Origin: Veillonellaceae bacterium DNF00626
GTDB lineage: Bacteria > Bacillota > Negativicutes > Veillonellales > Dialisteraceae
Assembly (NCBI GenBank): GCA_001553355.1
Contig: KQ960828.1
Location: forward strand, 129,668-193,667
Direction of reading: 5' to 3'
DNA: 64,000 nt
Part shown: piece after piece, positions 23,894 through 39,252 of the stretch
Numbering within the stretch: the first letter of the stretch is position 1
How the letters are laid out: each line of letters begins with the position of its first letter
Notes under the pieces: generated by a model
Told to the model about the DNA's origin: nothing
The model's input: the letters and a program-made list of their open reading frames with translations, nothing else
Database searches by the model: none
Position numbers and translations under genes: made by a program

Positions 23894-23979
23894 GCTATTA
23901 TACCTAATATGAATAATTTGTGTAGACTATATAAGTTGCAATATATTTTTATCATAATAAATTTTGTTTGAAAGAAGGA

Positions 23980-24007
23980 TTGATACAGCTTCTGATAAAT
24001 ATATATG
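23980..24007 (+). promoter_or_regulatory. Weak promoter candidate for the LPS operon
   Basis: TTGATA, a 16-bp spacer and TATATG lie about 53 bp before lpxI. The region is AT-rich and other placements are possible. Confidence 0.3.
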
Positions 24008-24060
24008 TAGATAAGGAAAAATATGGTAAAATAATAAAGAATAAAGGTTCGGGAGGAAAT

Positions 24061-24885
24061 ATGAAACGAGTGGGATTATTGGCAGGTGTTGGGATATTGC
24101 CTGTAGAATTTGTTAAAGCTTGTCATATGGAAAATATCGAAGTAGTATGCATAGCAGTTATTCCCGGAGTAAACCCGGCTTTGAAAAACTTATCTGATAA
24201 ATACTACGAAATTAGTGCATTTAAGTTGGACCAAGTAATTCGGACATGTTTAGATGAAAAAATTGATGAAGTAACCATGATTGGTAAAGTTACAAAGGAA
24301 TGGCTTTTTAAGAATCATGTGCTTCCGGATTGGCGAACAATAAAACTATTGAATCGATTGAGAAAAGCAAATTGGAAAGATGATACTATTACATTAGCCA
24401 TAGTGGACGAATTAAAAAAAGATAATATTGAAGTAGTAGATCAGACCAAATATTTACGCCCTTTTATGCCGGGTGCACAAATATTTACTAAGAAAAAACC
24501 GACCGAAGAAAATTTACAGGACATTCGATTGGGATTTGAAACAGCAAAAGCAATCGGCGCAATGGATTTAGGGCAAACTGTGGTTGTAAAAAATGGTGCC
24601 GTCATGGCTGTGGAAGCTATTGAAGGAACGGATGCTTGTATCAAACGTGGTGGAACATTGGCTCGTGGAAATGCAGTGGTAGTAAAGGTTGCAAAGCCTT
24701 TGCAAGATACTCGTTTTGATATGCCTACCGTAGGATTAACAACTATTTATTCTATGAAAGAAGGAGGATGCTCCGTATTAGCAATAGAAGCGCACTGTAC
24801 ATTATTGGCTGAACGGGAAAAGGTGATTAACGAGGCTGATCGTTTAGGTATGGTAATAGTAGCAGTGGAGCAAAATAATTTATGA
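24061..24885 (+). CDS. lpxI: UDP-2,3-diacylglucosamine diphosphatase LpxI
   Basis: LpxI hydrolyses UDP-2,3-diacylglucosamine to lipid X and UMP in lipid A synthesis. It is unrelated in sequence to LpxH. The 274-residue protein starts with GLLAGVGILPVEFVKA, and its C-terminal half has LRPFMPGAQ, QTVVVKNGAVMAVEAIEGTDA and LARGNAVVVKVAKP, which are typical of this family (formerly DUF1009). An upstream in-frame start (23968) would add 31 residues, but the ATG at 24061 has GGGAGG seven bases away. It overlaps lpxB and opens the LPS operon in this window. The earlier genes lpxA, lpxC and lpxD are not here. Confidence 0.9.
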   Translation: MKRVGLLAGVGILPVEFVKACHMENIEVVCIAVIPGVNPALKNLSDKYYEISAFKLDQVIRTCLDEKIDEVTMIGKVTKEWLFKNHVLPDWRTIKLLNRLRKANWKDDTITLAIVDELKKDNIEVVDQTKYLRPFMPGAQIFTKKKPTEENLQDIRLGFETAKAIGAMDLGQTVVVKNGAVMAVEAIEGTDACIKRGGTLARGNAVVVKVAKPLQDTRFDMPTVGLTTIYSMKEGGCSVLAIEAHCTLLAEREKVINEADRLGMVIVAVEQNNL

Positions 24886-26021
24886 AAATCATGATATCCG
24901 CCGGTGAAGCATCCGGTGACATGCATGCTTCAGCTGTTATAAAGGAAATAAAAAAAATAATACCATCAGCAGATATATTTGGTATGGGCGGAAGTCAAAT
25001 GCAAGCTGCCGGTGCACGTATTATTTATGATATAAATAATTTAGGTATAATAGGGATTGTTGAAGTAGTGAGGCATATCCCTTTTTTCCTTAAATTGAAA
25101 AAATATTTAAAAGAAACAATGAAAAAAGAAAAACCGGACGTTCTTGTTTGTGTGGATTATCCCGGGTTTAATATGAGGCTTGCAAAAATAGCACGAGAAC
25201 TTTCTATTCCGGTGGTTTATTATATTGCTCCCACTATTTGGGCATGGCAAAAAGGGCGAGGGGCGAAAATCACAAGAGATGTAAAAAAAGTTATTTCCAT
25301 ATTTCCTTTTGAAAAAGAAGCCTATGAAAAGATTGGTGCAGATGTAACTTATGTCGGAAACCCATTGATTGATACTGTGAAGCCTTCGTTATCGTATGCT
25401 GACGCTATGGCATATTTTCACGGAGATTCTAAAGCAAAACGAATTTTACTCATGCCCGGAAGTCGACTAAATGAAATTGAGTCACTCTTACCGGCGATGT
25501 TAAAAGCGGCTCGATTATTACTGCAAAAAATGTCATGTCAATTTTTTCTTCCTAAAGCTTCTACTATACCAAAAGAAAAATTAACGGACATTTTAGAAAA
25601 ATATCCGGATGTACCGGTGAATATCACAAATGATAAAACTTATGATTTGATGCAAATTTCCACCGTTTGTATAGCGTCATCAGGAACTGCAACCTTAGAA
25701 ACGGCATTAATGAAATTACCCACGGTCTTGGTATATCGATTATCGCCTTTGACTTGGTTTTTGGCTAAACGTTTAGTACATGTATCTTATGTTGGTCTTC
25801 CGAATATTCTTTTAGGGAAAGAGATAACACCGGAGTTATTACAAAATCAAGTAACTGCGGAATCTATCGCCCATATCGTAGGTAAGTGGATAACAGAGGA
25901 ACAACTTCTTGAGGAAAACCGAAAAGCGTTAGAAGATGTTAGACGATTATTGGATATCGGTGGTGCGGTACGACAAGCAGCACAAATTATTATAGAAACA
26001 GCAGGAGATGCTCATGGATAG
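24882..26021 (+). CDS. lpxB: Lipid-A-disaccharide synthase
   Basis: LpxB condenses UDP-2,3-diacylglucosamine with lipid X to the beta-1,6-linked disaccharide of lipid A. The 379-residue GT19 protein starts with the family motif GEASGDMHA. It contains VDYPGFNMRLA, YYIAPTIWAWQKGR and CIASSGTATLE near 265, which are characteristic. The length is normal. The ATG overlaps the lpxI stop, and the last 8 bases overlap msbA. Confidence 0.95.
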   Translation: MKIMISAGEASGDMHASAVIKEIKKIIPSADIFGMGGSQMQAAGARIIYDINNLGIIGIVEVVRHIPFFLKLKKYLKETMKKEKPDVLVCVDYPGFNMRLAKIARELSIPVVYYIAPTIWAWQKGRGAKITRDVKKVISIFPFEKEAYEKIGADVTYVGNPLIDTVKPSLSYADAMAYFHGDSKAKRILLMPGSRLNEIESLLPAMLKAARLLLQKMSCQFFLPKASTIPKEKLTDILEKYPDVPVNITNDKTYDLMQISTVCIASSGTATLETALMKLPTVLVYRLSPLTWFLAKRLVHVSYVGLPNILLGKEITPELLQNQVTAESIAHIVGKWITEEQLLEENRKALEDVRRLLDIGGAVRQAAQIIIETAGDAHG

Positions 26022-27765
26022 AAGTAAATGGCAAAGCTATAAACGATTATTAGCCTATTTATGGCCATATAAAAAACGCTTGGGATTATCTATTATTTTC
26101 ATGATTTTTGTCGCATTTTCCAATTTAGTTGTGCCATGGATTATTAAAGATGTGATTGATGGTGTTTTGGGAAATAAAGACATATATATGCTCTATTTAA
26201 TTATTCTTGGCATTTTATTTATTTTTTTCATTCGAGCATTAGCCACTTTTGGTCATCGATATTACATGGGATATATCGGACAGTCTGTGATTATGGACAT
26301 TAGAAATGTACTTTACCATCATTTGCAAACGTTATCCGTATCTTATTATGACCGTCGTCGTACCGGTGATATGATGAGTAATCTTACTAATGATATTGCA
26401 GCTCTTCAGACGGCAATTGTGGCAGATTTTGTTAGCTTAGTACAAGAAGTAGCAATTTTTATCGGATCTTTTGCATCCATGCTTTATTTACAATGGAAAT
26501 TAACCATTTTATGTTTAATTATTGTACCTTTGGTTTCTTATGTAATCAATTTCTTTGGGAAAAAATTACATGCCAGTGGATTAGATGTACAAGCCGCATT
26601 GGCTGATGTAACATCTATGCTTCAAGAAACTATACAAGGCGTTCGTATCGTAAAAAGCTTTAACCGAAGTGATTATGAAGAAGAGCGTTTTAATAATGTA
26701 AATAAATCAAATTTTCATGCCAATGTACGCACTATCAAACAGCAAAGTCAATTAACGCCATTAGTGGAATTTTTTGCGGCTTTAGGAATTTGTGCCATCA
26801 TATGGTATGGTGGAATATCAGTTATCGATGGAGTCATGACTACCGGAGAATTGATTGCATTTTTAATTTATGCGATTAATTTAGCCAATCCCACTCGACG
26901 CATTGCGGAAAGTATGGGAAATATTCAAAAATCATTAGCAGCGGCAGATCGTATTTTTGATATTTTAGATGAACAACCGGAAATAGAAAATAAAAAAGGA
27001 GCGCGCCCCCTTATAATAAAAAATGGAGATGTAAAAGCTGAACATGTATCTTTTGCTTATGAACCGGGACACTGGATATTGAAAGATGTTAATTTTATAG
27101 CTCATCCCGGTGAAACGATCGCTTTAGTAGGTCCTTCAGGATCAGGAAAAACAACTGTAGCAAACCTATTACCACGTTTTTATGATGTAAGTTCAGGTTG
27201 TATCAAAATAGATGGAGTGGATATTCGTGATGTAACTATTGAATCACTTCGCGAACATATTGGCATTGTACCGCAAGATACATTGTTATTTAATACAACC
27301 ATTAGGGAAAATATTTTATACGGTAAATTAGATGCTACTGATGAAGAAATAGAAGCAGCCATTAAAGCGGCTAATGCAGAAGAATTTATTCATGCTCTCC
27401 CTGAAGGTATATATACTAAAGTAGGAGATCGTGGGATGATTCTTTCCGGTGGGCAACGCCAAAGAATCGCTATTGCACGTGCTATTCTAAAAAATCCGGC
27501 CATACTTATTTTAGATGAAGCTACATCAGCATTAGACACGGAAAGTGAGAAAATCGTGCAAGAAGCTTTAGATCGATTAATGAAAGGTCGGACATCTTTT
27601 GTTATTGCACATCGTTTATCGACAATCAAAAAAGCTGATCAAATATTAGTTCTTCATGATGGTTGTGTGGCAGAACACGGCACTCATAAAGAATTAATTG
27701 CGCAGCATGGTTTATATTATGAATTATATACTTTATCCGATCGTAAAAAGGAAGGAGATAAGTAG
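26014..27765 (+). CDS. msbA: Lipid A ABC flippase MsbA
   Basis: MsbA flips core-lipid A across the inner membrane as a homodimer. The 583-residue half-transporter has six transmembrane helices in the first 320 residues. Its nucleotide-binding domain shows Walker A GPSGSGKTT, the Q-loop IVPQD, the signature LSGGQRQR, Walker B ILILDEATSALD and the H-loop in AHRLS. The ATG at 26008 directly abuts the AGGAG box, while the ATG at 26014 is 6 bases from it and is preferred. It overlaps lpxB and is followed by waaA with the stop and GTG sharing one base. Its place in the LPS operon supports lipid A as substrate over other drugs or lipids. Confidence 0.9.
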   Translation: MDRSKWQSYKRLLAYLWPYKKRLGLSIIFMIFVAFSNLVVPWIIKDVIDGVLGNKDIYMLYLIILGILFIFFIRALATFGHRYYMGYIGQSVIMDIRNVLYHHLQTLSVSYYDRRRTGDMMSNLTNDIAALQTAIVADFVSLVQEVAIFIGSFASMLYLQWKLTILCLIIVPLVSYVINFFGKKLHASGLDVQAALADVTSMLQETIQGVRIVKSFNRSDYEEERFNNVNKSNFHANVRTIKQQSQLTPLVEFFAALGICAIIWYGGISVIDGVMTTGELIAFLIYAINLANPTRRIAESMGNIQKSLAAADRIFDILDEQPEIENKKGARPLIIKNGDVKAEHVSFAYEPGHWILKDVNFIAHPGETIALVGPSGSGKTTVANLLPRFYDVSSGCIKIDGVDIRDVTIESLREHIGIVPQDTLLFNTTIRENILYGKLDATDEEIEAAIKAANAEEFIHALPEGIYTKVGDRGMILSGGQRQRIAIARAILKNPAILILDEATSALDTESEKIVQEALDRLMKGRTSFVIAHRLSTIKKADQILVLHDGCVAEHGTHKELIAQHGLYYELYTLSDRKKEGDK

Positions 27766-29060
27766 TGTATTTCCTATATAACGCCTGTTTATTTTTCCTA
27801 TGGCAAGTTATCTATCGCCCGCTACGAATTTATGGAAAGTTAAAAGGGAATGGTGTTTATCTTCGTGAAAAGCATAATAAAAAAATATTAGATTCATGGA
27901 TTGGTGGAGACACCATTTGGATTCATGCGGCATCAATTGGCGAAGTAATTGCCGCCATTCCTATTATTAAAGAAATAAAAAGGCAGCATCCTAATAAGAA
28001 AATTTTCTTATCCCTTTTGACTGAAAACGGTTTTCACATGGCACAAAAGAAATTATCAGAGGTAGATGGATTTTTCTATTTTCCCTTTGATTATCCTGCT
28101 AAATTAAAAGAAATATTTGACATCATTCAGCCAAATTCGGTTATCTTGATAGAAACCGAATTGTGGCCTAATTTCATTTCTATTGCCCATAAAAGATCCA
28201 TCCCTATTTTCTTGATGAATGGACGTATTAGTGAAAACTCAATGAAATATTATAAATTCTGCCGACGGCTTTTTTCAAAGATTTTACCATATATATCCAT
28301 TTTTTCTATGCAAACACAAGTTGATCAAGAGCGGATTATCAAATTAGGCGCATTACCAAAACAAGTAACAGTTACAGGAAATACAAAGCGTGAACAAGAA
28401 TGGAAGTCTATGACGGAAAAAGAATGGCATCATTGGTGTCACTTATTTTCCATAAAAGAGGAACCCATCATCGTTGCAGGAAGTACACATCAAGGAGAAG
28501 AAGAAATATTATTAGATGCTTATGGAAAAATATTGAAAAATATTCCTACTGCACGACTTTTTATTGGTATTCGCGATATAAATAGACGAGAAGAAATAAG
28601 AAAATTAGTTAAGCAACGAGGTTATAGCGTTGCTTTGAGAAGTGAAATAAAGGATATTTGCGATACACAAATTATTATTGTGGATACTATTGGTGAATTG
28701 GGATATTTTTATGGTCTTGCTACGGTAGTTGTCGTTGGCGGTAGTTTTGTACCTATAGGAGGTCATAACATTTTAGAACCGGCTGCATGGGGAAAGGCAA
28801 TTATTGTAGGACCACATATGGAGAATTTCAAAGAGATCTATCAATCATTACTAACAAAACGAGCTTGCATTACTGCGACAAACGAGAAAGAATTGACGGA
28901 TATATTATTAGATTTAATACGCCATGAAGAAAAAAGAAATGCAATGGGAGAACAAGCAAAAAAAATGGTAAAACTTAATTCCGGTGCTACTCAAAAAAAT
29001 GTTGAACTTTGGGCTAATTATCTTACGGAGTTCTATTCAACGCAAGGTGAAAAACCATGA
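27765..29060 (+). CDS. waaA: Kdo transferase
   Basis: WaaA (KdtA) transfers one or more Kdo residues from CMP-Kdo to the lipid A precursor. The 431-residue protein has an N-terminal membrane anchor and the motifs WIHAASIGEVIAAIP near 52-66, FFYFPFDYP, and VILIETELWPNF near 125, all diagnostic for Kdo transferases. The C-terminal half holds GGSFVPIGGHNILEPAAWG, a GT30 hallmark. The start is GTG at 27765, which shares its first base with the msbA stop, after GGAAGGAG. The number of Kdo residues added cannot be read from sequence. Confidence 0.94.
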   Translation: MYFLYNACLFFLWQVIYRPLRIYGKLKGNGVYLREKHNKKILDSWIGGDTIWIHAASIGEVIAAIPIIKEIKRQHPNKKIFLSLLTENGFHMAQKKLSEVDGFFYFPFDYPAKLKEIFDIIQPNSVILIETELWPNFISIAHKRSIPIFLMNGRISENSMKYYKFCRRLFSKILPYISIFSMQTQVDQERIIKLGALPKQVTVTGNTKREQEWKSMTEKEWHHWCHLFSIKEEPIIVAGSTHQGEEEILLDAYGKILKNIPTARLFIGIRDINRREEIRKLVKQRGYSVALRSEIKDICDTQIIIVDTIGELGYFYGLATVVVVGGSFVPIGGHNILEPAAWGKAIIVGPHMENFKEIYQSLLTKRACITATNEKELTDILLDLIRHEEKRNAMGEQAKKMVKLNSGATQKNVELWANYLTEFYSTQGEKP

Positions 29061-30166
29061 ATATAGTAACTTATATATTGAAACTCCAAAACAAAAAGCA
29101 TCATAGCGGAATAGATCGATGGATATGGATAAGCCTTAGAGCATTAGAAAAGATATATGCCTTTAGCCTGAAAAATAAAAGAAAAAGAGATATAAAAAAT
29201 CAACAAAAACTTTCAGTTCCGGTAATTAGTATAGGAAATATTACTGCCGGTGGCACAGGGAAAACCCCATGTATGATACGAATAGCTAATGAAATAAAAA
29301 AAGAGGGACATCACCCGGCCATTCTCTTAAGAGGTTATAAAAGTCAATGGGAAAATAAAGGTGGAGTTATATCCGATGGTATCCATATGCTTGTAGATAG
29401 AAAAATTGCCGGTGATGAAGCATACATGACAGCGCTACGAGTACCCGGCGTTCCTATCTATATAGGGAAAAACAGAGAATTATCTGCTAAAAGAGCAATA
29501 AATGATGGTGCTGATGTTATACTTATAGATGACGGCTTTCAATATTGGAAACTTCATCGAGATTTAGATATTCTGCTTATTGATGGTATAAACCCATTTG
29601 GGAATACACATCTTCTACCGTGCGGGATTTTACGGGAACAATTGTCCGAATTAAAAAGAGCAAATTTATTTATTTTGACAAAAAGTGATCAAATAACGGA
29701 AAATGAAAAAAATGATATTAAACTCATATTGAAGCAATGGGCACCATGCACACCAATTATTGAAGGGAATCATACGCCCAAAGGATGTATAGCTTTATCT
29801 GCTTGGAAAGAAAAAAAATACGAAACCATAACGAAATTTACGAATGACAATGTTTTATTAGCATCAGGGATTGGAAATCCAAAATCCTTTTCACATACCG
29901 CAAAAGAAATAGGACTTCACCCGGTAGCAGAAATACATTGGGATGATCATCACGACTATACCGAAAAAGATATAAGGGAAATAGCACAAAAAGCCAAATC
30001 CCTTTTTCTAAATAAAGTAATTATTACTGAAAAAGATGCCGTAAAAATAGGTGATTTTTCTTTAGCTTTTAACTGTGGAGTTGATTTTTACGTACTGCCT
30101 ATTGAGATGACTTTTGCATTAAAAGACGAAGAAATACTAAGGAAGCACTGGGAGGATTTATTATGA
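29057..30166 (+). CDS. lpxK: Tetraacyldisaccharide 4'-kinase
   Basis: LpxK phosphorylates the 4' position of the tetraacyldisaccharide to give lipid IVA. The 369-residue protein has the Walker A region of the family in VGNITAGGTGKTP-like sequence (here ISIGNITAGGTGKT near 54-67), LLRGYKS, VILIDDGFQ and the C-terminal TEKDAVKI. It overlaps waaA by 4 bases in ATGA form and kdsB by 4 bases. In many diderms waaA and lpxK lie together, which agrees. Confidence 0.94.
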   Translation: MNIVTYILKLQNKKHHSGIDRWIWISLRALEKIYAFSLKNKRKRDIKNQQKLSVPVISIGNITAGGTGKTPCMIRIANEIKKEGHHPAILLRGYKSQWENKGGVISDGIHMLVDRKIAGDEAYMTALRVPGVPIYIGKNRELSAKRAINDGADVILIDDGFQYWKLHRDLDILLIDGINPFGNTHLLPCGILREQLSELKRANLFILTKSDQITENEKNDIKLILKQWAPCTPIIEGNHTPKGCIALSAWKEKKYETITKFTNDNVLLASGIGNPKSFSHTAKEIGLHPVAEIHWDDHHDYTEKDIREIAQKAKSLFLNKVIITEKDAVKIGDFSLAFNCGVDFYVLPIEMTFALKDEEILRKHWEDLL

Positions 30167-30894
30167 AAGTAGCATGTATTATCCCATCGCGCTATGGATC
30201 TACTAGATTACCGGGAAAACCGCTTCGCTTGATTGGGGGAGAACCATTGATTCGTCGTGTCTATGAACGAGTTATATTAGCTAAAAGCCCGGACTTAGTA
30301 ATGGTAGCTACTGATGATGAAAGAATTTTAAAAGAAGTTCAAAATTTTGGCGGGCGGGCTATCATAACTGCTAAAACACATCGAACCGGAACAGATCGAT
30401 TAGCAGAAGCTGCAGAAAATCTGATTGATTATGATATTATAATCAATGTACAGGGGGACGAACCTTTTATTTCTCCGGCCATTATTGATCAATTAGTAAA
30501 TGTTCTAAAAAATAGTAGAGATTTATCTATGGCGACTGTAGCTACACCAATGAAAGAAAAAGAATATAATGATTCATCAGCAGTAAAAGTAGTTATGAAT
30601 CAAAAACAAGAAGCGTTATATTTCTCTCGCTCATTGATTCCTTATCCACGCGAAATAAAACAATTTCCGGTATGGAAACATGTGGGAATTTATGCCTATC
30701 GAAGAGATTTTCTACTACATTATGCAAAAATGGAACAGACTCCCTTAGAAAAAGTAGAGTCATTAGAACAACTTCGAGCATTAGAAAATGGGTATAAAAT
30801 AGGTGTTATTATTACACAAACAGAAAGTATCGGTATTGATACGGAGGAAGATTTAATTCGTGCCAATGAATATTGGAGGAGGAGCAAACAATGA
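30163..30894 (+). CDS. kdsB: CMP-Kdo synthetase
   Basis: KdsB makes CMP-Kdo, the donor used by WaaA, from Kdo and CTP. The 243-residue protein starts with IIPSRYGSTRLPGKPL, the nucleotide-binding motif of the family, and has VQGDEPFI with the metal-binding aspartate and MATVATP. The length fits. It overlaps lpxK and kdsA at ATGA junctions, consistent with tight co-expression. Confidence 0.96.
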   Translation: MKVACIIPSRYGSTRLPGKPLRLIGGEPLIRRVYERVILAKSPDLVMVATDDERILKEVQNFGGRAIITAKTHRTGTDRLAEAAENLIDYDIIINVQGDEPFISPAIIDQLVNVLKNSRDLSMATVATPMKEKEYNDSSAVKVVMNQKQEALYFSRSLIPYPREIKQFPVWKHVGIYAYRRDFLLHYAKMEQTPLEKVESLEQLRALENGYKIGVIITQTESIGIDTEEDLIRANEYWRRSKQ

Positions 30895-31712
30895 AACCTA
30901 TTCAAGTAGGATCTTTGACATTAGATACGAATCACTTGTTTTTAATAGCCGGTCCTTGTGTTATTGAAAACTATGATCGTACATTAATGATTGGTCGTGA
31001 AATAAAGAAAATCTGTGCGAAGCTAAATATCCCTTATATCTTTAAGGCTTCGTATGATAAAGCTAATCGATCTTCATATCGATCTTTTCGTGGGCCGGGA
31101 TTAGATGAAGGATTAGAAATATTAGCATCAATAAAAAAAGAATTACAGGTGCCTGTACTTTCTGATGTTCATGAAGTAAATCAATTGGAAAAAGCAGCAG
31201 ATGTATTAGATATGATCCAAATTCCTGCATTTTTATGTCGCCAAACGGATTTGGTTTATGGCGCCGCCAAAACAGGAAAAGCGGTAAATGTCAAAAAAGG
31301 ACAATTTATGGCTCCTGAAGATATGAAAAATGTTATTGAAAAAATGGAAGAAGCACATAATGAAAATTTAGCATTAACGGAAAGAGGAATTTCCTTTGGT
31401 TATCATAATTTAGTTGTAGATATGAGAGCATTACCAACTATGAGACAATTCGGTTATCCTGTAATTTACGATGCAACTCATAGCGTACAACTTCCCGGAG
31501 GTATGGGAACGAGTACCGGAGGCATGCGTGAAATGATTCCTTATTTAGCTCGAGCCGCAGCGGCTACAGGTGTTGATGGCTTTTTCATGGAAGTGCATGA
31601 TAACCCACCGGAAGGATTATCTGATTCAACAAATATGCTTTATTTATCTGCGCTGGAAGATTTACTTAAGGATTTAATTGCTATCAATGATGTTGTTAAA
31701 CATGATAAATAA
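30891..31712 (+). CDS. kdsA: Kdo-8-phosphate synthase
   Basis: KdsA condenses arabinose 5-phosphate with phosphoenolpyruvate to Kdo 8-phosphate. The 273-residue TIM barrel shows IAGPCVIEN, FKASYDKANRSS, RGPGLDEGL, VPVLSDVHE and YDATHSVQLPGG. Whether it is the metal-dependent or independent form is open: the segment ending AGPCVIEN has a cysteine at the position that binds metal in some KdsA enzymes. A TTG at 30873 is in frame, but the ATG at 30891 follows GGAGGAGG and overlaps the kdsB stop. kdsD lies 20 bp downstream. Confidence 0.96.
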   Translation: MKPIQVGSLTLDTNHLFLIAGPCVIENYDRTLMIGREIKKICAKLNIPYIFKASYDKANRSSYRSFRGPGLDEGLEILASIKKELQVPVLSDVHEVNQLEKAADVLDMIQIPAFLCRQTDLVYGAAKTGKAVNVKKGQFMAPEDMKNVIEKMEEAHNENLALTERGISFGYHNLVVDMRALPTMRQFGYPVIYDATHSVQLPGGMGTSTGGMREMIPYLARAAAATGVDGFFMEVHDNPPEGLSDSTNMLYLSALEDLLKDLIAINDVVKHDK

Positions 31713-31732
31713 TACACGTAGAGGAGGAAACT

Positions 31733-32704
31733 ATGGCTGCTATTGATATTGCTATTCGTGTACTTCGAGATGAGGCAGCTGCAATAGAAGAAATAACCTG
31801 TCAATTAGATGATTCTTTTAATCAAGCCATTGATTTAATTTTATCTACCAAAGGACGCGTTATTCTTTCCGGTATGGGAAAATCCGGTCATGTAGCGCGA
31901 AAAGTAGCTGCTACTATGGCTAGTACAGGAACTCCGGCATTTTTTCTTCACCCTGCGGAAGCCATACATGGTGATTTAGGCATGGCAACAAAACATGATG
32001 TGATAATTGCTTATTCTAATAGTGGGGAAACAGCAGAAATATTACATATGATTCCTTCTATCAAACGTATCGGGACATCACTCATTGCTGTTACAGGGAA
32101 AATAAAATCTACTTTAGCCCAAAATGCTGATATTTCCTTAAATAGTCATGTGAACAAGGAAGCGGATAGCTTAGGATTAGCTCCTACTAATTCTACTACG
32201 GCAGCATTAGCATTAGGAGATGCATTGGCTGTGGCATTGATGGAAATGAGACATTTTACCTCAGATAATTTCGCAGTTTTTCATCCCGGAGGCTCATTAG
32301 GTAAGAAATTACTTCTTACGGTAGATGTGCTTATGCATAAAGGCCATGATAATCCCATTATTAATAAAGATGCATCAGTGAAAAATGCACTTTTCATAAT
32401 GACCGATAAAGGATTAGGCGCAGTGTCTGTTGTTGATGAAAATAAAAAACTTTTAGGAATTCTCACTGACGGAGATATTCGAAGAGCTATTGAAAAAGGC
32501 ATAGATTTTCTTCAATGTCCCGTAGAAAAAGTAATGACTGCATCTCCCCGAGTTATTTTTCCAAGCCAACTGGCAACAGAAGCACTCCGCATAATGGAAA
32601 CACATACACCGCGACCAATTACGGTATTACCGGTAACGGATGAAGAAAATCAAGTAATAGGAATGATTCATATTACTGATTTATTAAAACGAGGTATAGT
32701 ATAA
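31733..32704 (+). CDS. kdsD: Arabinose-5-phosphate isomerase
   Basis: KdsD converts ribulose 5-phosphate to arabinose 5-phosphate, the first step of Kdo synthesis. The 323-residue protein has a SIS sugar-isomerase domain (about 30-180) with GMGKSGHVARKVAATMASTG (shown in part) and SNSGETAEI, then two CBS domains (about 205-320). The length and domain order match KdsD/GutQ. Its place between kdsA and kdsC supports KdsD. Its stop overlaps the kdsC ATG by one base. Confidence 0.95.
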   Translation: MAAIDIAIRVLRDEAAAIEEITCQLDDSFNQAIDLILSTKGRVILSGMGKSGHVARKVAATMASTGTPAFFLHPAEAIHGDLGMATKHDVIIAYSNSGETAEILHMIPSIKRIGTSLIAVTGKIKSTLAQNADISLNSHVNKEADSLGLAPTNSTTAALALGDALAVALMEMRHFTSDNFAVFHPGGSLGKKLLLTVDVLMHKGHDNPIINKDASVKNALFIMTDKGLGAVSVVDENKKLLGILTDGDIRRAIEKGIDFLQCPVEKVMTASPRVIFPSQLATEALRIMETHTPRPITVLPVTDEENQVIGMIHITDLLKRGIV

Positions 32705-33225
32705 TGAGCGATGTAAAAAATATAAAGTTATTGGCTTTTGATGTAGATGGTACATTAACTCCGGGTGATCTTATATTCGGAAAAGAAGGAGAAGTTTATA
32801 AATCCTTTTGTGTGAAAGACGGTATGGCCATGGGACTTGCTCATTATGCCGGATTTATTACCGGATTTATTACCGGCCGATCTTCCGATATCGTAAAAAA
32901 AAGAGGAGAAGAATTACATATCGATTTTCTTCTTATGGGAATAGAAAATAAAGAAAAGGCATTGGAGAATATTTTGAAAAAGTACCGTATTTCATGGGAA
33001 GAAGTGGCATACATGGGTGATGATTTAAACGATCTGCCCTTATTTTCTAAAGTAGGTCTATCCGGATGTCCGGCAGATAGTTGTAAAGAAATTATCATGA
33101 CTGCCGGATTTGTTTCTCAATATAACGGTGGAAAAGGCGCTGCTCGAGAATTTATTGAGAAAATTATGAAAGCACAAAATCGATGGAATCAGGCAGTAGA
33201 ACATTTTATTTCATTACGAAAGTAA
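32704..33225 (+). CDS. kdsC: Kdo-8-phosphate phosphatase
   Basis: KdsC removes the phosphate from Kdo 8-phosphate. The 173-residue HAD phosphatase lacks a cap domain, as in the tetrameric C0 family. Motif I is DVDGTLTPG with the nucleophile Asp near 13, motif II is ITGRSS, and motif IV is MGDDLNDLPLF. The segment GCPADS is also typical of KdsC. With kdsD, kdsA and kdsB the full route from ribulose 5-phosphate to CMP-Kdo is encoded in consecutive genes. Confidence 0.94.
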   Translation: MSDVKNIKLLAFDVDGTLTPGDLIFGKEGEVYKSFCVKDGMAMGLAHYAGFITGFITGRSSDIVKKRGEELHIDFLLMGIENKEKALENILKKYRISWEEVAYMGDDLNDLPLFSKVGLSGCPADSCKEIIMTAGFVSQYNGGKGAAREFIEKIMKAQNRWNQAVEHFISLRK

Positions 33226-33248
33226 AGGATATTTAATAGAGGCTGTAT

Positions 33249-34202
33249 ATGAAATGGCGATGGAAATATAAAATATTAAAGGGGCTTAGTTATTTACTTT
33301 GTTCTTTATCTTATGAGCGAATACTCATCATAGGAAAATTTATTGGCCCGTTTATTTTAAATCATATTGAGAAACAGAAAAAACGAGGGATTTCTCAAAT
33401 TATGACAGGCATGGAATATAAACAAAAAGAGGCTGAAGCTTTATTGCAAAAAGTTTATGAAAATATAGGCATGACTGTTATGGAAATACTTTATATGCCT
33501 CGTCTATGCAAAGAAAAAGAAAATTTATCCAAATATATTACAATCAACCATGCAGAACGCTTAGAAAAAGCATATGCAGAAGGGAAGGGGATTGTTGGCC
33601 TTACTGCACATATAGGTAATTGGGAATGGTTAGGTGCAGGCTTAGCACTTTCAGGATACGCTACATCAGCTATCGGGAAAAAACAAGACGATAGTGGGAT
33701 TATGGAAATTTTGAACAACTATCGTTCAGCAGCAGGAGAACATATTTATCTTACCGGTACAGGCGGATATCAAATGATTGCTGCTGCTAGAGCCATAAAA
33801 AATAATCACATTTTAGGATTTCTTTCAGACAAAGATGCCAGAAAAGATGGTGTACCTGTCAGGTTCATGAATCGAATTTTTTCTTTTCCTTTAGGACCGC
33901 TTACATTTGCTGATAAATTTCAAGCACCTATTATTCCTCTTTTTATTGTAAGAAATAATAACGGAATTGGTCATGTTATTCATATAGAAGAACCTTTTCT
34001 CTATGAACGAACAGGTAATAAGGATAAAGATATTTTGATAAATGCACAACGAATGGCTTCATTATTAGAAAACTTTATCAAGGCATATCCTGATCAATGG
34101 ATGTGGTTTCAACATCTTTTTTGGACAGAAGCTAAAGATATTAAACGATATACAGTGTTAAGTGCGGAAGAAAAAGAGCAGTATGGATTGAATGAAAGCT
34201 AA
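33249..34202 (+). CDS. lpxL: Lipid A late acyltransferase (LpxL/HtrB family)
   Basis: This 317-residue protein belongs to the LpxL/LpxM family, which adds secondary acyl chains to Kdo-lipid A at the inner membrane. The catalytic dyad is seen as HIGNWE, with His121 and Glu126 in the H-x4-E arrangement. A second family motif appears as FLSDKDARKDGVPVRF. There is one hydrophobic segment near the N-terminus. It is the only such enzyme in the window, so whether it acts as LpxL or LpxM, and on which chain, cannot be decided here. It lies 23 bp after kdsC. Confidence 0.85.
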   Translation: MKWRWKYKILKGLSYLLCSLSYERILIIGKFIGPFILNHIEKQKKRGISQIMTGMEYKQKEAEALLQKVYENIGMTVMEILYMPRLCKEKENLSKYITINHAERLEKAYAEGKGIVGLTAHIGNWEWLGAGLALSGYATSAIGKKQDDSGIMEILNNYRSAAGEHIYLTGTGGYQMIAAARAIKNNHILGFLSDKDARKDGVPVRFMNRIFSFPLGPLTFADKFQAPIIPLFIVRNNNGIGHVIHIEEPFLYERTGNKDKDILINAQRMASLLENFIKAYPDQWMWFQHLFWTEAKDIKRYTVLSAEEKEQYGLNES

Positions 34203-34214
34203 AAAGAAAGGATC

Positions 34215-34748
34215 ATGATGATATTACATAGTAAAAAATTATGGTTGATTATAATCATGGGGATTTTTATAGGGTCATTTTGCTTTTTCTTTTGTAATAA
34301 AGAAAAACCCACAGAAGAAAATCAATCCACTATTGAATTTACCGGTGTAGAGTTAAAAGAAGAACAAAATGGCAAAGTTATATGGAAACTAAAAGTAGAC
34401 CATGGTAAAGTAGATAGAGAAAATAATATCATTCAACTAACAGGTATTGATGGCTATTTCATCAAAGATGATAATCAATTACAGATTGTAGCAAAAGAAG
34501 GACGTTGGGAGAAAAATGATAAAATTATTTTTCTAGAAGGACATGTAGAAGGGAAAACAAGCGATGGCGGGCATGTTTCCGCAGAAAATATCAAATATGA
34601 TGAGAAAATAGATACGCTTTCCACAGATAAACCTTTTACTATAGAAAAAGATGGACGCATTTTATCTGCCGATTCCTTTACAGCTGATAGAGTGTTAGAA
34701 GAAATAACGGCTAAAGGACATGCAAAATTGAAAGATAAGGAGAAATAA
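34215..34748 (+). CDS. lptC: LPS export protein LptC
   Basis: LptC is a bitopic inner membrane protein that receives LPS from the LptBFG transporter and passes it to LptA. The 177-residue protein has a single N-terminal membrane segment (about 8-27) and a periplasmic beta-jellyroll with repeated strands such as IQLTGIDGYFI, IFLEGHVEGK and ITAKGHAKL. Two ATG codons at 34215 and 34218 are both possible after AGAAAGGA. Position before lptA and lptB supports the call. Confidence 0.85.
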   Translation: MMILHSKKLWLIIIMGIFIGSFCFFFCNKEKPTEENQSTIEFTGVELKEEQNGKVIWKLKVDHGKVDRENNIIQLTGIDGYFIKDDNQLQIVAKEGRWEKNDKIIFLEGHVEGKTSDGGHVSAENIKYDEKIDTLSTDKPFTIEKDGRILSADSFTADRVLEEITAKGHAKLKDKEK

Positions 34749-34750
34749 AA

Positions 34751-35467
34751 ATGAAAAAAACATATAAATATTTATGGATTATGCTTTTCCTTATTTTTAG
34801 TATGAGTACTGTATCCGCTGATGAAATTACTGCTGATAGTCTTACCTATAACGGAAAATCACAAATCGTAACTGCCACAGGAAATGTTATTATTCAAAAT
34901 AATGAGGGAGCAATAATAACCGGTAATGAAGGTGAATATAATTTCATTACTCATACAGCTTATATAACAGGAAATGTAGTATATGAAAAAGACTCTATCC
35001 ATATGACAGCAGGGAAAATATCTCTCTATTCAGACCATACCATCCATGGTAGTGGACATGTATCTATCGAAGATAGTTCAGGTCCTCATCTATTGAAAGG
35101 AGAAGAAATAACATACCAAGATGAAACAGGATTTGGTAAAATAATAGGTAATGCATATTATGAATCAGCCAAAGGATATTTAAGCGCTCCACAGATAGAA
35201 GGAAATATAAAGGAAATTCATATAGAAGCTATTGGTGGAGTTACTTTTTCTTATCCTGCACAAAATGCGGAGGGAAGATCTGATACAGCTGTATATACAC
35301 GAAGCGGAATGAACGGAACTGATGGACAATTAGTACTTACCGGAGCAGCACATGTGATACAGAATGGAAATATTTTCGATGGCCCGGAATTAATTATTCG
35401 TGATAATGAGCAAATTGTAGAAACCGGTGGACGTAGCACGCTTGTTATTCAAACGGATAAATCATGA
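34751..35467 (+). CDS. lptA: Periplasmic LPS bridge protein LptA
   Basis: LptA builds the periplasmic bridge that carries LPS from LptC to the outer membrane LptD. The 238-residue protein has a signal peptide ending near SADE (about residue 24). A beta-jellyroll of OstA type follows, with repeating units such as ATGNVIIQNNEGA, ITGNVVYEKDS and GSGHVSIEDSS. It is longer than E. coli LptA (185), so it may have extra strands. It is 2 bp from lptC. Confidence 0.85.
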   Translation: MKKTYKYLWIMLFLIFSMSTVSADEITADSLTYNGKSQIVTATGNVIIQNNEGAIITGNEGEYNFITHTAYITGNVVYEKDSIHMTAGKISLYSDHTIHGSGHVSIEDSSGPHLLKGEEITYQDETGFGKIIGNAYYESAKGYLSAPQIEGNIKEIHIEAIGGVTFSYPAQNAEGRSDTAVYTRSGMNGTDGQLVLTGAAHVIQNGNIFDGPELIIRDNEQIVETGGRSTLVIQTDKS

Positions 35468-35482
35468 ACATAAGGAAAATTT

Positions 35483-36205
35483 ATGAAAATACAAACTTTA
35501 GATTTATTAAAAAAATACGGAAAACGTACCGTAGTTGATCACGTTAATATAGAAGTAGAACAAGGCACTATTGTTGGACTTTTAGGCCCAAATGGTGCCG
35601 GAAAAACTACAACATTTTATATTATTGCCGGTATTATTTCTCCGGATGGTGGCGAAGTGTATGTTGATGAAGTTCTGTTAACTCATATGCCCATGCATAA
35701 GAGATGTCAATTTGGTATTAGTTATTTACCACAAGAAGCATCCGTATTTAAAAAAATGACAGTTTGGGAAAATTTAATATCACTTTTAGAAACAAGAACT
35801 GATTTAACAGAAAATCAAAAAAAAGAAAAAGCGGAACAATTGTTAACGGAATTTCACATTATGCATGTGAAAGACACAATAGGAGAAGCTCTCTCCGGGG
35901 GAGAAAGAAGAAGAGTAGAAATTGCAAGAGCGCTTACTATGGATCCTGCATTTATCTTATTAGATGAACCATTTGCCGGAGTTGATCCTTTAGCCGTAGA
36001 AGATATACAAAGTGTTATCAAGCAACTTAAAACAAAAAATATAGGCATCTTAATTACAGATCATAATGTACGTGAAACATTACATATAGTAGACGAAGCA
36101 TATATTTTATCAGAAGGAAAAGTACTTTTAAAAGGGACAGCAGAAGATATCTCTCAAAATCCTATTGCAAAAACATATTATTTGGGAGAAAATTTTAGTT
36201 TATAA
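35483..36205 (+). CDS. lptB: LPS export ATPase LptB
   Basis: LptB powers extraction of LPS from the inner membrane. The 240-residue ATPase has Walker A GPNGAGKTT near 38-46, the Q-loop YLPQEASVF, the signature LSGGERRR, Walker B FILLDEPFAGVDP and ILITDHNVRETL, which together are typical of LptB. It lies between lptA and the LptF/G-type permease with short gaps. Confidence 0.95.
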   Translation: MKIQTLDLLKKYGKRTVVDHVNIEVEQGTIVGLLGPNGAGKTTTFYIIAGIISPDGGEVYVDEVLLTHMPMHKRCQFGISYLPQEASVFKKMTVWENLISLLETRTDLTENQKKEKAEQLLTEFHIMHVKDTIGEALSGGERRRVEIARALTMDPAFILLDEPFAGVDPLAVEDIQSVIKQLKTKNIGILITDHNVRETLHIVDEAYILSEGKVLLKGTAEDISQNPIAKTYYLGENFSL

Positions 36206-36224
36206 CAAGAAAGAAGGGGGACTT

Positions 36225-37316
36225 ATGCGCATATTAGATAAATATATACTAAAAGAATTTATAAGCCCTTTTCTTTTTGGCGTAGCTGCCTTCACATCTA
36301 TTTTTTTAGGAGCAGATACTTTACTTAAAATCGCTAATTATGTAACTACATATGGTGCATCCACTCTATCAGCACTTAAAATATTTTTACTCGCATTACC
36401 ACAAATTATTATCTATACTTTTCCTATGGCTATTCTATTAGGTAGTCTTATGGCTATGTATAGACTATCCGGTGATAGTGAATTAGTTATTATGCGTACA
36501 TCGGGACAAAGCTTTTTACGACTTGCTCGACCTATTTTTATTTTTGCATTTATTATTAGCATTGGAACTATATTATTTAATGAATATGTAGTACCATGGA
36601 CAAATACACAATATGAATATGTAATTAACCATGAAATAAAACAAAATTTAGAACCTAAATCGGCTGAACATGTAGTTTTACGTGACGTAGAAGATGGGCA
36701 GATAAAACATTTACTTTATGCACGAAGATATAATGCAGAAACAAAAAAATTAGAAAATATAACAATACAAGAATTTCAAAATGATAAAGTTATACGCATA
36801 GAAAACGCCCCCTTTGCTAATTGGCAAAATGGGATATGGAATATGACAAATGGCATTATATATGACTTATCTGATGATGGCGTTCAACGTATGGTTACTT
36901 TCAAAAATCAAATTATCCCTTATATTCAGACCCCGGAAGAAATAGCAAAAACGCAAAGAAGTTTTGATCAATTAACAATTAGAGAACTTATAGCCATTTA
37001 TAAAGCCTATGAGTCAGCTCATACAGATACAACAGCCGTTATTATGGAAATTGAAAAACGATTTTCTTTGCCGATGGCGAGTTTCCTTTTTGCTCTTATT
37101 GGTGCCCCTTTAGGTGTAAAAAAAGGACGCTCATCATCCTCTTTAGGATTTGGATTATCAGTAGCAATTATTTTTGCTTATTACGCTATCATGACATTTT
37201 TAGAAGCTATGGGAAAGGGGCATATTTTACCGGCAACCTTAGCCGTGTGGCTTCCTAACATAATTGTTTTTTTCTGCGCAATATATCTAATAAGACAAAA
37301 AGACGGTAAAATATAA
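36225..37316 (+). CDS. LptF/LptG-family permease
   Basis: This 363-residue inner membrane protein is an LptF/LptG (YjgP/YjgQ) permease that forms the LPS extractor with LptB. The N-terminal RILDKYILKEFISPF and the following hydrophobic segments, the central periplasmic beta-jellyroll (about 130-270) and the C-terminal helices with SLPMASFLFALIGAPLGV match the family. The ATG at 36225 has AAGAAGGGGG and replaces an upstream in-frame start inside lptB. Only one permease gene of this type is present in the window, so either a second copy lies elsewhere or the protein acts as a homodimer. Confidence 0.9.
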   Translation: MRILDKYILKEFISPFLFGVAAFTSIFLGADTLLKIANYVTTYGASTLSALKIFLLALPQIIIYTFPMAILLGSLMAMYRLSGDSELVIMRTSGQSFLRLARPIFIFAFIISIGTILFNEYVVPWTNTQYEYVINHEIKQNLEPKSAEHVVLRDVEDGQIKHLLYARRYNAETKKLENITIQEFQNDKVIRIENAPFANWQNGIWNMTNGIIYDLSDDGVQRMVTFKNQIIPYIQTPEEIAKTQRSFDQLTIRELIAIYKAYESAHTDTTAVIMEIEKRFSLPMASFLFALIGAPLGVKKGRSSSSLGFGLSVAIIFAYYAIMTFLEAMGKGHILPATLAVWLPNIIVFFCAIYLIRQKDGKI

Positions 37317-37330
37317 CAAGGAGGATTTCT

Positions 37331-38542
37331 ATGTTTATTGGTGTAGCCATATTTCTCATTCTTATGCTTATGGGCGGAATAATTGCTTTTTTGGGAGATA
37401 AAATTGGCTCAAAAGTAGGAAAAAAAAAGATGACTCTTTTTGGCTTACGCCCGCGATATACATCTATCATTGTTACCATTATCTCAGGTGTTCTCATTTC
37501 TTTTCTCACTATTGCAGTATTGGCAGTAGTTAATGAAAACGTGCGAGTGGCTCTTTTCGGTTTAAATAAATTACAGACAGAAATGGCTCACTTAAATCAA
37601 GAAATTAAAGTTAAAAATCAAGAATTAGCAGAGGGAAATCGACGCCTTGGTGAAGGTCAAAAACAATTAGAAGAAAGAAATAAAGAATATGATGAAGTTA
37701 CACGTCGCGCAGAATCTACATCTCGTACATTAGCAAGAGTAGAAAGCCAAAGATCTTATATAGAAAATGAATTAACCACAGCACAAAATGCTTATGAAGA
37801 AGCAAAAAAAGGTGTTGAAAAATCTGCTGAAGAAATCAAAACATTGGAAAACGTTAAAACTGAATTATCCGGAAACATTGAAAAATTGAATAAAGAAAAA
37901 CAAACACTTATTGGCAGTATAGCAGCTATTCGAGAAGGTGTTGTTGTTTTTCGTGCCGGTCAAGTGCTTACCGATGCAGTAGTTGATGAACATATGACAA
38001 AAGAACAATCAGAACAAGTTCTGGCAAGCATTTTAAACGATATTAACAACATGCTTATAGAAAAAATGAACATTACCGATAAAAATGCTTATTTAATTCG
38101 TATCTCACAAACAGATTTTGATGAAGCGGTAAACAAAGTAACTAATTCGGAAAAGAAAAAATTACTTCGGATTATATCTGTGGGAAATATTATTTTAGGT
38201 GAACCGGCTGTGGTTACTTTTGATGTACATGACAATAATCTTATTTTCCATAAAAATGAAACTATTCTGACTGCTTACATGTACGAATATAAAGGATTTA
38301 AGCAAGCTGATGCCCAAGTATTAAGTCTTTTAAGTGAACTAAATAGCTTAGCACAAAAAAGGGGAGTATTGTCTGATCCGATTACCGGAAAAGTGGGAAA
38401 ATTAGAAGGTCAAGAACTTATTAATGTAATTGAAAAAGTAAAAAATGCTAATAGTCGTTGTACGCTTATTGTAAAAGCCAAGACCGATATTTATACCGAA
38501 GGACCGCTTCTGATTACAGTAAAAGTGAAGGAAGACAACTAA
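37331..38542 (+). CDS. DUF3084 membrane coiled-coil protein
   Basis: This 403-residue protein matches the DUF3084 type known from Cyanobacteria and Negativicutes. It has two N-terminal membrane segments (about 2-24 and 43-66) joined by a short basic loop that includes KKKMTLFGLRPRYT. A long coiled coil of about 120 residues (75-195) follows, then a C-terminal soluble domain with IREGVVVFRAGQVL and GNIILGEPAVVTF. The function is not known. It is placed directly after the Lpt permease (14 bp) and overlaps the RuvC-like gene by one base. Its position suggests an envelope role coupled to LPS export, but that is inference. Confidence 0.8.
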   Translation: MFIGVAIFLILMLMGGIIAFLGDKIGSKVGKKKMTLFGLRPRYTSIIVTIISGVLISFLTIAVLAVVNENVRVALFGLNKLQTEMAHLNQEIKVKNQELAEGNRRLGEGQKQLEERNKEYDEVTRRAESTSRTLARVESQRSYIENELTTAQNAYEEAKKGVEKSAEEIKTLENVKTELSGNIEKLNKEKQTLIGSIAAIREGVVVFRAGQVLTDAVVDEHMTKEQSEQVLASILNDINNMLIEKMNITDKNAYLIRISQTDFDEAVNKVTNSEKKKLLRIISVGNIILGEPAVVTFDVHDNNLIFHKNETILTAYMYEYKGFKQADAQVLSLLSELNSLAQKRGVLSDPITGKVGKLEGQELINVIEKVKNANSRCTLIVKAKTDIYTEGPLLITVKVKEDN

Positions 38543-38976
38543 TGATACTTGCTATTGATCCCGGAACAATAAAAAGTGGTATAGCCATTATAGAAAATGA
38601 TGGACAATTGGTGATGAAAACTATTATAGCCACTGCAAATTTAGAAAAAGAAATAATCACATTGCTCACTAAATATTTAGTGCATGTTATAGTATCAGGA
38701 AATGGAACAAATCATAAAGCCGTAAAAAAAAGATTAACGGAATTACTAAAAGCTGAAAACATATCATTATCTATCGAGTTAGTCAATGAAAAATATACTA
38801 CAGAAATGGGTGAAGAATGGTATTGGAAAGACCATAAACCAAAAGGATGGAAACGCATTATCCCTAAAGGATTTCGCACTGTTCCTGTACCTATTGATGA
38901 CTATGTGGCTTGGATTATAGGAAATATCTACATTGGTCGAATAAAAGAAGAAGACGTAAATCATAAAAAAACATAA
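38542..38976 (+). CDS. RuvC/YqgF-like RNase H-fold protein
   Basis: This 144-residue protein has an RNase H-like fold of the RuvC/YqgF superfamily. The N-terminal AIDPGTIKSGIAI has the first catalytic acid (Asp6), VNEKYTTE has a conserved glutamate (Glu83), and PIDDYVAWI has the C-terminal aspartate (119 or 120). Between the last two lies an unusual basic and tryptophan-rich stretch (91-116). It could process structured nucleic acid, but that is untested. The ATG at 38542 overlaps the DUF3084 stop; a longer in-frame start at 38458 lies inside that gene and is rejected. It is the last gene of the LPS operon. Confidence 0.65.
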   Translation: MILAIDPGTIKSGIAIIENDGQLVMKTIIATANLEKEIITLLTKYLVHVIVSGNGTNHKAVKKRLTELLKAENISLSIELVNEKYTTEMGEEWYWKDHKPKGWKRIIPKGFRTVPVPIDDYVAWIIGNIYIGRIKEEDVNHKKT

Positions 38977-39007: not shown

Positions 39008-39053
39008 CAAAAAAGAACGTTCAACGCAAAATCGTTAAACGTTCTTTTTTTTG
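39008..39053. terminator. Bidirectional terminator after the LPS operon and the tRNA pair
   Basis: AAAAGAACGTT-C-AACG pairs with CGTT-A-AACGTTCTTTT around a 6-base loop, with T runs on both strands. It ends the plus-strand LPS operon and the minus-strand tRNA-Pro/tRNA-Arg unit. Confidence 0.85.
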
Positions 39054-39223: not shown

Positions 39224-39252
39224 ATTATAGTATAAATATTCGATTTTGTCAA
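39224..39252 (-). promoter_or_regulatory. Consensus promoter of the tRNA-Pro/tRNA-Arg unit
   Basis: On the minus strand a perfect TTGACA, a 17-bp spacer and a perfect TATAAT lie 13 bp before tRNA-Pro. Confidence 0.9.

What the first reader, a model, noticed from the sequence alone, without database searches (positions are those of the whole stretch)
37331..38976. DUF3084 and a RuvC/YqgF-like protein fused to the end of the LPS operon
After the Lpt permease come a two-helix coiled-coil membrane protein (DUF3084) and a 144-residue RNase H-fold protein with the acids Asp6, Glu83 and Asp119/120. They overlap by one base, so their levels are linked. A membrane coiled-coil protein paired with a nuclease-like protein in an LPS-export operon has no known explanation and could link envelope and nucleic acid events.
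Basis: partly seen in the sequence, partly recalled or inferred. Interest (0 to 1): 0.6.

Follow-up and report, generated by a model that had tools for sequence, protein, structure and literature searches.

The report
LPS-operon membrane protein with nuclease partner
At the end of the outer-membrane (LPS) operon of a Dialister bacterium sits a published but unexplained gene pair, a membrane coiled-coil protein and a small nuclease-like protein, which nearly always occur together across two bacterial phyla and may link the cell envelope to RNA or DNA handling.

Summary
DUF3084 (37331-38542) and a 144-residue RuvC/YqgF-like protein (38542-38976) share one base (TAATG) and close a 16-gene lpx-kds-lpt operon that ends in a terminator. 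The pair is not new: Antunes et al. 2016 (PMC5007114) named both as unexplained genes of the outer-membrane cluster in all Negativicutes and Halanaerobiales. Added here: (1) In 300 Bacillota genomes the RuvC-like gene (72) occurs only with DUF3084 (76), always downstream and on the same strand when on one contig (63/63). In 38 Margulisbacteria genomes both occur in the same 10, adjacent in all 10, although 37 have LPS permeases, so the link there is more than 'both need an outer membrane'. (2) Asp6, Glu83 and Asp119 are invariant, the predicted fold is RNase H (best match Tex), and a separate true RuvX exists in every genome checked. (3) DUF3084 proteins have a basic, conserved 24-residue loop predicted cytosolic, with the coiled coil and a duplicated alpha/beta domain predicted periplasmic; only the loop could meet a cytosolic nuclease. 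Best reading: an Lpt-associated scaffold recruiting a YqgF-type nuclease, probably an RNase. Contact, activity and substrate are untested.

The parts
23968..38976 (+). 16-gene LPS operon: lpxI, lpxB, ABC exporter (MsbA-type), kdtA, lpxK, kdsB, kdsA, kdsD, kdsC, lipid A acyltransferase, lptC, lptA, lptB, lptF/G, DUF3084 and RuvC-like, short-spaced or overlapping
   Evidence: Pfam and NCBIfam; ORF spacing; the gene upstream (22568-23821) is on the other strand
36222..37316 (+). LptF/LptG permease, the only copy in the genome, directly upstream of DUF3084
   Evidence: PF03739 2.2e-89; single copy; same neighbour in 60/76 Bacillota and 10/10 Margulisbacteria
37331..38542 (+). DUF3084 inner-membrane protein, 403 aa
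   Evidence: PF11283 1.1e-28; in all 41 relatives
37340..37531 (+). Transmembrane hairpin, residues 4-21 and 46-67, with a basic conserved loop (residues 22-45) predicted to be cytosolic
   Evidence: Mean K+R 7.0 in the loop, 0 before TM1 and 2.7 after TM2 over 30 homologues; 13 of the 19 invariant columns lie in residues 1-77
37565..37933 (+). Long helix / coiled coil, residues 79-201, predicted periplasmic
   Evidence: AlphaFold2 helix 79-201; coiled-coil matches only in PDB and NCBIfam
37940..38233 (+). C-terminal alpha/beta repeat 1 (residues 204-301)
   Evidence: hhalign repeat 1 against repeat 2: probability 97.7, E 2e-12; reversed control 0.5; block pLDDT 84-97 from residue 211
38234..38533 (+). 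C-terminal alpha/beta repeat 2 (residues 302-401)
   Evidence: as repeat 1
38542..38976 (+). RuvC/YqgF-like RNase H-fold protein, 144 aa, last gene of the operon
   Evidence: PF16921 1.7e-7 above cut-off, PF03652 1.5e-5 below cut-off; AlphaFold2 91.8; Foldseek Tex 9.5e-6
38557..38559 (+). codon of Asp6 (strand 1)
   Evidence: invariant
38788..38790 (+). codon of Glu83 (just after strand 5, the YqgF/Tex position)
   Evidence: invariant; strand 77-81 in the model
38896..38898 (+). codon of Asp119 (start of the C-terminal helix)
   Evidence: invariant; helix 119-130
39009..39050 (+). Intrinsic terminator: 17-bp stem with one mismatch, running into a T-tract
   Evidence: fold -16.4 kcal/mol, z -5.1, 0 of 200 shuffles as good; converging tRNA genes begin at 39052

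Best explanation
The pair is a conserved functional unit of the LPS-export region in LPS-bearing diderm Bacillota and in part of the Margulisbacteria. Shown: the two genes co-occur almost without exception, in fixed order, usually behind an LptF/G permease gene, and here they are the last two genes of the operon. The second protein has a predicted RNase H fold with a complete, invariant YqgF-type acid triad and is not the cell's RuvX. Inferred: the DUF3084 protein is anchored by its hairpin next to the LptB2FG transporter, with its coiled coil and duplicated alpha/beta domain reaching into the periplasm. Its basic, conserved cytosolic loop, or the transporter itself, holds the YqgF-type nuclease at the membrane. 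The nuclease then cuts nucleic acid, most likely RNA as shown for Deinococcus YqgF, in step with the state of LPS export or the envelope, for example messages for envelope proteins translated at the membrane. The contact, the activity and the substrate are all untested.
For: Exclusive co-occurrence: the 72 RuvC-like genomes all lie within the 76 with DUF3084, of 300; two of the four exceptions have DUF3084 near a contig end. In Margulisbacteria both are in the same 10 of 38 while 37 of 38 have LptF/G, so possession of LPS transport does not explain the pairing there. Order and strand are fixed in 63/63 same-contig cases. DUF3084 lies upstream in 75 of 80 named loci, within 450 bases in 74, including Halanaerobiales and Margulisbacteria. 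LptF/G lies directly upstream of DUF3084 in 60/76 and 10/10. Start-stop overlaps of 1 or 4 bases in all 12 family-level genomes. Triad invariant in two 40-row sets. Fold. Separate RuvX in all 41 relatives and in 4 distant genomes. Topology and loop conservation. Deinococcus YqgF with the same kind of triad is a Mn-dependent RNase, blocked by E106A and D122A (PMC9601230).
Against: In 34 of 63 same-contig Bacillota cases other DNA lies between the two, SLH-domain outer-membrane protein genes in most of the loci inspected, so direct adjacency is not required. YqgF-type sites have only three carboxylates, and nuclease activity has been disputed for some members (PMC3985635). Within Bacillota the pair tracks LptF/G almost perfectly, so there the outer membrane alone could explain the pattern. 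The 10 Margulisbacteria may be a single clade, which would make their agreement one evolutionary event.
Confidence: 0.4

Rival explanations
1. Cluster passenger: both genes are old residents of the large outer-membrane cluster and are kept or lost with it. The RuvC-like protein does a housekeeping job (rRNA processing or junction cleavage) unrelated to DUF3084.
For: The cluster is very large and conserved (PMC5007114). In Bacillota the pair tracks LptF/G. Other genes may lie between the two.
Against: In Margulisbacteria 27 genomes keep LptF/G but have neither gene, and the 10 that have one have both, adjacent. A canonical RuvX is already present in every genome checked. No genome of the 338 sampled has a strong RuvC-like match without DUF3084.
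Confidence: 0.3
2. Envelope bridge with a non-nuclease partner: DUF3084 is a periplasm-spanning tether or Lpt accessory that works with SLH/OmpM-type outer-membrane proteins, and the RuvC-like protein is a binding or assembly factor in which the acid triad serves folding or metal binding, not cutting.
For: Long helix of about 120 residues, predicted periplasmic, and a duplicated domain. SLH-domain proteins lie between or beside the genes in several lineages. Tex, the closest fold match, lacks the third carboxylate and has no shown nuclease activity (PMC3985635).
Against: Unlike Tex, all three acids are invariant here, which a purely structural role does not readily explain.
Confidence: 0.2
3. 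The RuvC-like protein is a Holliday-junction resolvase, as its COG0816 annotation says, and sits in the LPS operon only for growth-rate control.
For: Fold similarity to RuvC and RuvX; MtYqgF and HpYqgF resolve junctions (PMC9601230).
Against: Closest to Tex in both sequence and fold, the second acid is in the YqgF position and not the RuvC position, and RuvX is present elsewhere. Strict linkage to a membrane protein gives no support for a resolvase role.
Confidence: 0.08

Closest known systems
COG0816 + COG4372/DUF3084 pair of the outer-membrane cluster (Antunes et al. 2016, PMC5007114)
   Different: That passage gives no mechanism, catalytic residues, topology or duplication, and the comparison stays within Firmicutes; here Margulisbacteria are added, with a test against LptF/G and the recurrent lptF/G - DUF3084 - ruvC-like order
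YqgF/RuvX (PF03652), e.g. Deinococcus YqgF, a Mn-dependent RNase
   Same: RNase H fold, Asp on strand 1, Glu after strand 5, Asp on the C-terminal helix
   Different: Scores below the Pfam cut-off (25.8 against 29.2) and far below the NCBIfam cut-off (17 against 155); GNGT motif as in Tex; own conserved GW-RR-P-PP-PVDD segment; a true RuvX is present separately
Tex YqgF-like domain (PF16921; PDB 3bzk)
   Same: Best sequence family above cut-off and best fold match; shared GNGT motif
   Different: Stand-alone 144-residue protein, not one domain of a protein of over 700 residues; keeps the third acid that Tex lacks
RuvC resolvase
   Same: Fold
   Different: Second acid after strand 5, not on strand 4
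LptC and other Lpt accessory membrane proteins (comparison from general knowledge)
   Same: Inner-membrane anchor with a periplasmic domain, encoded beside the Lpt permease
   Different: Two-helix hairpin, coiled coil and a duplicated alpha/beta domain instead of a beta-jellyroll; LptC is encoded separately in the same operon

Membership tests
DUF3084 (PF11283) | N-terminal hairpin domain above the gathering score | tested here: met
   99.4 bits against 25
RNase H-like superfamily | beta1-beta2-beta3-alpha1-beta4-alpha2-beta5-alpha3 fold | tested here: met
   AlphaFold2 pLDDT 91.8; Foldseek Tex 9.5e-6, RuvC 1.0e-4, RuvX 1.5e-4; a predicted, not solved, structure
RuvX/YqgF (PF03652) | Curated score cut-off | tested here: not met
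   25.8 against 29.2 for the window protein; NCBIfam 17.3 against 155; only 5 of the 41 genomes' copies of this gene pass the Pfam cut-off
RuvX/YqgF (PF03652) | Asp / Glu after strand 5 / Asp triad | tested here: met
   D6, E83, D119 invariant; strand positions
RuvX/YqgF (PF03652) | Groups with RuvX in a tree | tested here: not met
   All RuvX form one group at 100/100 without any member of this family; the deeper placement is unresolved
Tex | Multidomain protein with the YqgF-like domain inside | tested here: not met
   144 aa, single domain
RuvC | Glu at strand 4 and two acids on the last helix | tested here: not met
   Strand 4 is 49-53 with invariant Gly53; Glu83 follows strand 5; only Asp119 is invariant on the last helix
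YqgF-type nuclease (functional claim) | Metal-dependent cleavage of RNA or DNA | not testable with these tools
   Needs a biochemical assay
Lpt-associated module | Encoded beside the LptF/G permease | tested here: met
   60/76 Bacillota and 10/10 Margulisbacteria
Lpt-associated module | Physical association with LptB2FG or between the two proteins | not testable with these tools
   No complex prediction was available

The most novel reading that the evidence does not exclude
The unit is a new kind of envelope-to-nucleic-acid relay: a periplasm-reaching sensor on the LPS-export machine whose cytosolic loop controls a dedicated membrane-recruited nuclease, so that envelope or LPS-export state directly sets RNA decay or processing in these LPS-bearing lineages.
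Probability: 0.18. Interest if true: 0.85.

Novelty: new variant of a known kind. Interest (0 to 1): 0.5.

Why it matters
The outer membrane of the diderm Bacillota is thought to be ancestral. Two genes of its LPS-export region still have no function that I could find, ten years after they were flagged. The data here turn them into one testable unit: a YqgF-type protein with a complete triad, distinct from RuvX, nearly always paired with a membrane scaffold beside the LPS permease, with one predicted contact site (the 24-residue cytosolic loop) and three named catalytic residues. If the unit works as proposed, it would be a direct physical link between envelope export and nucleic acid turnover.

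Tried and rejected
Gene fusion: rejected, separate ORFs. Chance adjacency: rejected. The RuvC-like protein as the genome's RuvX: rejected. A defence-system component: only coiled-coil matches to LmuB and JetC for DUF3084 and nothing for the RuvC-like protein. A known fold for the DUF3084 C-terminal domain: best PDB match E 0.17, the weak eL31 hits are not significant, and the PDB profile search returned only coiled coils. A Pfam scan of the isolated C-terminal pieces failed on a frame error of mine and was not repeated. The DUF3084 papers checked outside PMC5007114 use the name for other coiled-coil matches. Cyanobacteria: control genomes show DUF3084 in Synechococcus elongatus, Thermus and Deinobacterium, but the RuvC-like partner could not be searched for there. 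The promoter scan found fewer sites than shuffles and gave no usable operon promoter; its terminator rule missed the terminator found by folding.

Full report
Observation. The two genes are as described. DUF3084 runs from ATG 37331 to the TAA at 38540-38542, and the RuvC-like ORF begins at the ATG that reuses base 38542 and ends at 38976. Upstream stand lpxI, lpxB, an ABC exporter, kdtA, lpxK, kdsB, kdsA, kdsD, kdsC, an acyltransferase, lptC, lptA, lptB and one LptF/G permease, all on the + strand from 23968 and closely spaced. A 17-bp stem running into a T-tract at 39009-39050 (-16.4 kcal/mol, z -5.1) ends the unit in front of converging tRNA genes. The RuvC-like gene is therefore the last gene of the operon. 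That the whole run is one transcript is inferred from spacing, strand and the terminator.

Prior knowledge. The pair is in the literature. Antunes et al. 2016 (PMC5007114) list three proteins of unclear annotation with conserved synteny in the outer-membrane cluster. [quoted passage not shown] No functional study was found in the searches made, which cover open-access papers only.

Linkage. All 41 closest genomes hold both genes, and the 12 family-level genomes overlap by 1 or 4 bases. Among 80 named loci in GTDB genomes, DUF3084 is found upstream in 75. L113, L118, L124 and L139 have too little upstream sequence. L110 has no DUF3084 in its upstream sequence, the one real exception, and in L137 the two lie 3.1 kb apart. 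In 300 genomes of the phylum DUF3084 occurs in 76 and a strong RuvC-like match (E < 1e-14) in 72, all of them among the 76. On 63 shared contigs the RuvC-like gene is always downstream on the same strand, directly adjacent in 29. Where other genes intervene, most of those scanned carry SLH domains, as outer-membrane tether proteins do. Two of the four DUF3084-only genomes, G153 and G206, have DUF3084 near a contig end.

Is the linkage only the shared need for an outer membrane? In Bacillota this cannot be excluded: LptF/G above the cut-off occurs in 74 genomes, all of which have DUF3084. In the Margulisbacteria sample the answer is different. LptF/G is in 37 of 38 genomes, but DUF3084 in 10 and the RuvC-like gene in 10, the same ten, adjacent in each. 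If those genomes were independent, the chance of identical sets would be about 3e-9. They are not independent and may be one clade, so the honest claim is at least one joint presence/absence difference among LPS exporters. In all ten an LptF/G gene lies 21-36 bases upstream of the DUF3084 match, giving the order lptF/G - DUF3084 - ruvC-like in two phyla.

The RuvC-like protein. The model is confident (pLDDT 91.8) with RNase H topology. Foldseek ranks Tex first (9.5e-6), then RuvC and RuvX. By sequence PF16921 (Tex YqgF-like) passes its cut-off and PF03652 (RuvX) does not. Asp6, Glu83 and Asp119 are invariant in two 40-row sets, which overlap in part and both contain the window protein. Glu83 follows strand 5, which is the YqgF/Tex position and not the RuvC position (criteria from PMC9601230 and PMC3985635). 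Tex lacks the third acid; this family keeps it. A canonical RuvX lies elsewhere in all 41 relatives and in four distant genomes. In a tree RuvX and Tex each form a group at 100/100 without members of this family, though the deep order is unresolved and one divergent member (L203) falls weakly beside Tex. Deinococcus YqgF is a Mn-dependent RNase with no junction activity, so RNA is the more likely substrate. That is an inference by analogy.

The DUF3084 protein. The invariant columns concentrate in the hairpin region: 13 of 19 lie in residues 1-77. The loop between the helices averages 7.0 Lys+Arg, against 0 before the first helix and 2.7 after the second. By the positive-inside rule the loop is cytosolic and everything after residue 67 is periplasmic. 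A helix of about 120 residues follows (confidence is low near its start), then a region that profile comparison shows to be a tandem duplication of a domain of about 97 residues (probability 97.7, E 2e-12; reversed control 0.5). No solved structure matches it.

Mechanism. Shown: near-exclusive co-occurrence, fixed order, operon context and invariant triad; the fold is a confident prediction. Inferred, in decreasing certainty: the topology; that the two proteins act in one process; that the RuvC-like protein is an active nuclease; that the DUF3084 loop or the Lpt permease recruits it; that the substrate is RNA and the signal is LPS export or envelope state. The passenger explanation is the main rival and is weakened, not excluded, by the Margulisbacteria pattern.

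Verdict. Observation confirmed, interpretation partly supported, pair previously published without function. Novelty is set at 'new variant of a known kind' for the protein family and the cross-phylum module; the co-localisation in diderm Firmicutes itself is already known. Interest is moderate: the question is old and open, and is now directly testable through one loop and three residues.

Noticed in passing
36222-37316; G000: The genome has only one LptF/LptG-family gene, as do the other Negativicutes in the phylum sample, while most other diderm Bacillota there have two; the permease may be a homodimer here.
   Followed up: partly
G241:C13:137894-138934, G290:C79, G288:C152, G187:C101, G117:C81: In several diderm Bacillota an LptF/G domain lies in an open frame of about 1050-1140 residues, perhaps a permease fused to another domain.
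   Followed up: no
L187:5928-8534, L188:7329-13653, L192:6428-10411, L193:4195-5016: SLH-domain (OmpM-like) genes stand between DUF3084 and the RuvC-like gene in some lineages, or directly after DUF3084 at a contig end (L192).
   Followed up: partly
37940-38533: Tandem duplication of an alpha/beta domain with no solved relative in the C-terminal half of DUF3084 proteins.
   Followed up: partly
G037:C30:20952-21367: The RuvC-like gene is split by a frameshift in one draft genome of the same order; may be a sequencing error.
   Followed up: no
39224-39252: Perfect TTGACA-17-TATAAT on the - strand in front of tRNA-Pro and tRNA-Arg.
   Followed up: no
23968-24885: The UDP-diacylglucosamine hydrolase step is encoded by lpxI in this operon.
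   Followed up: no
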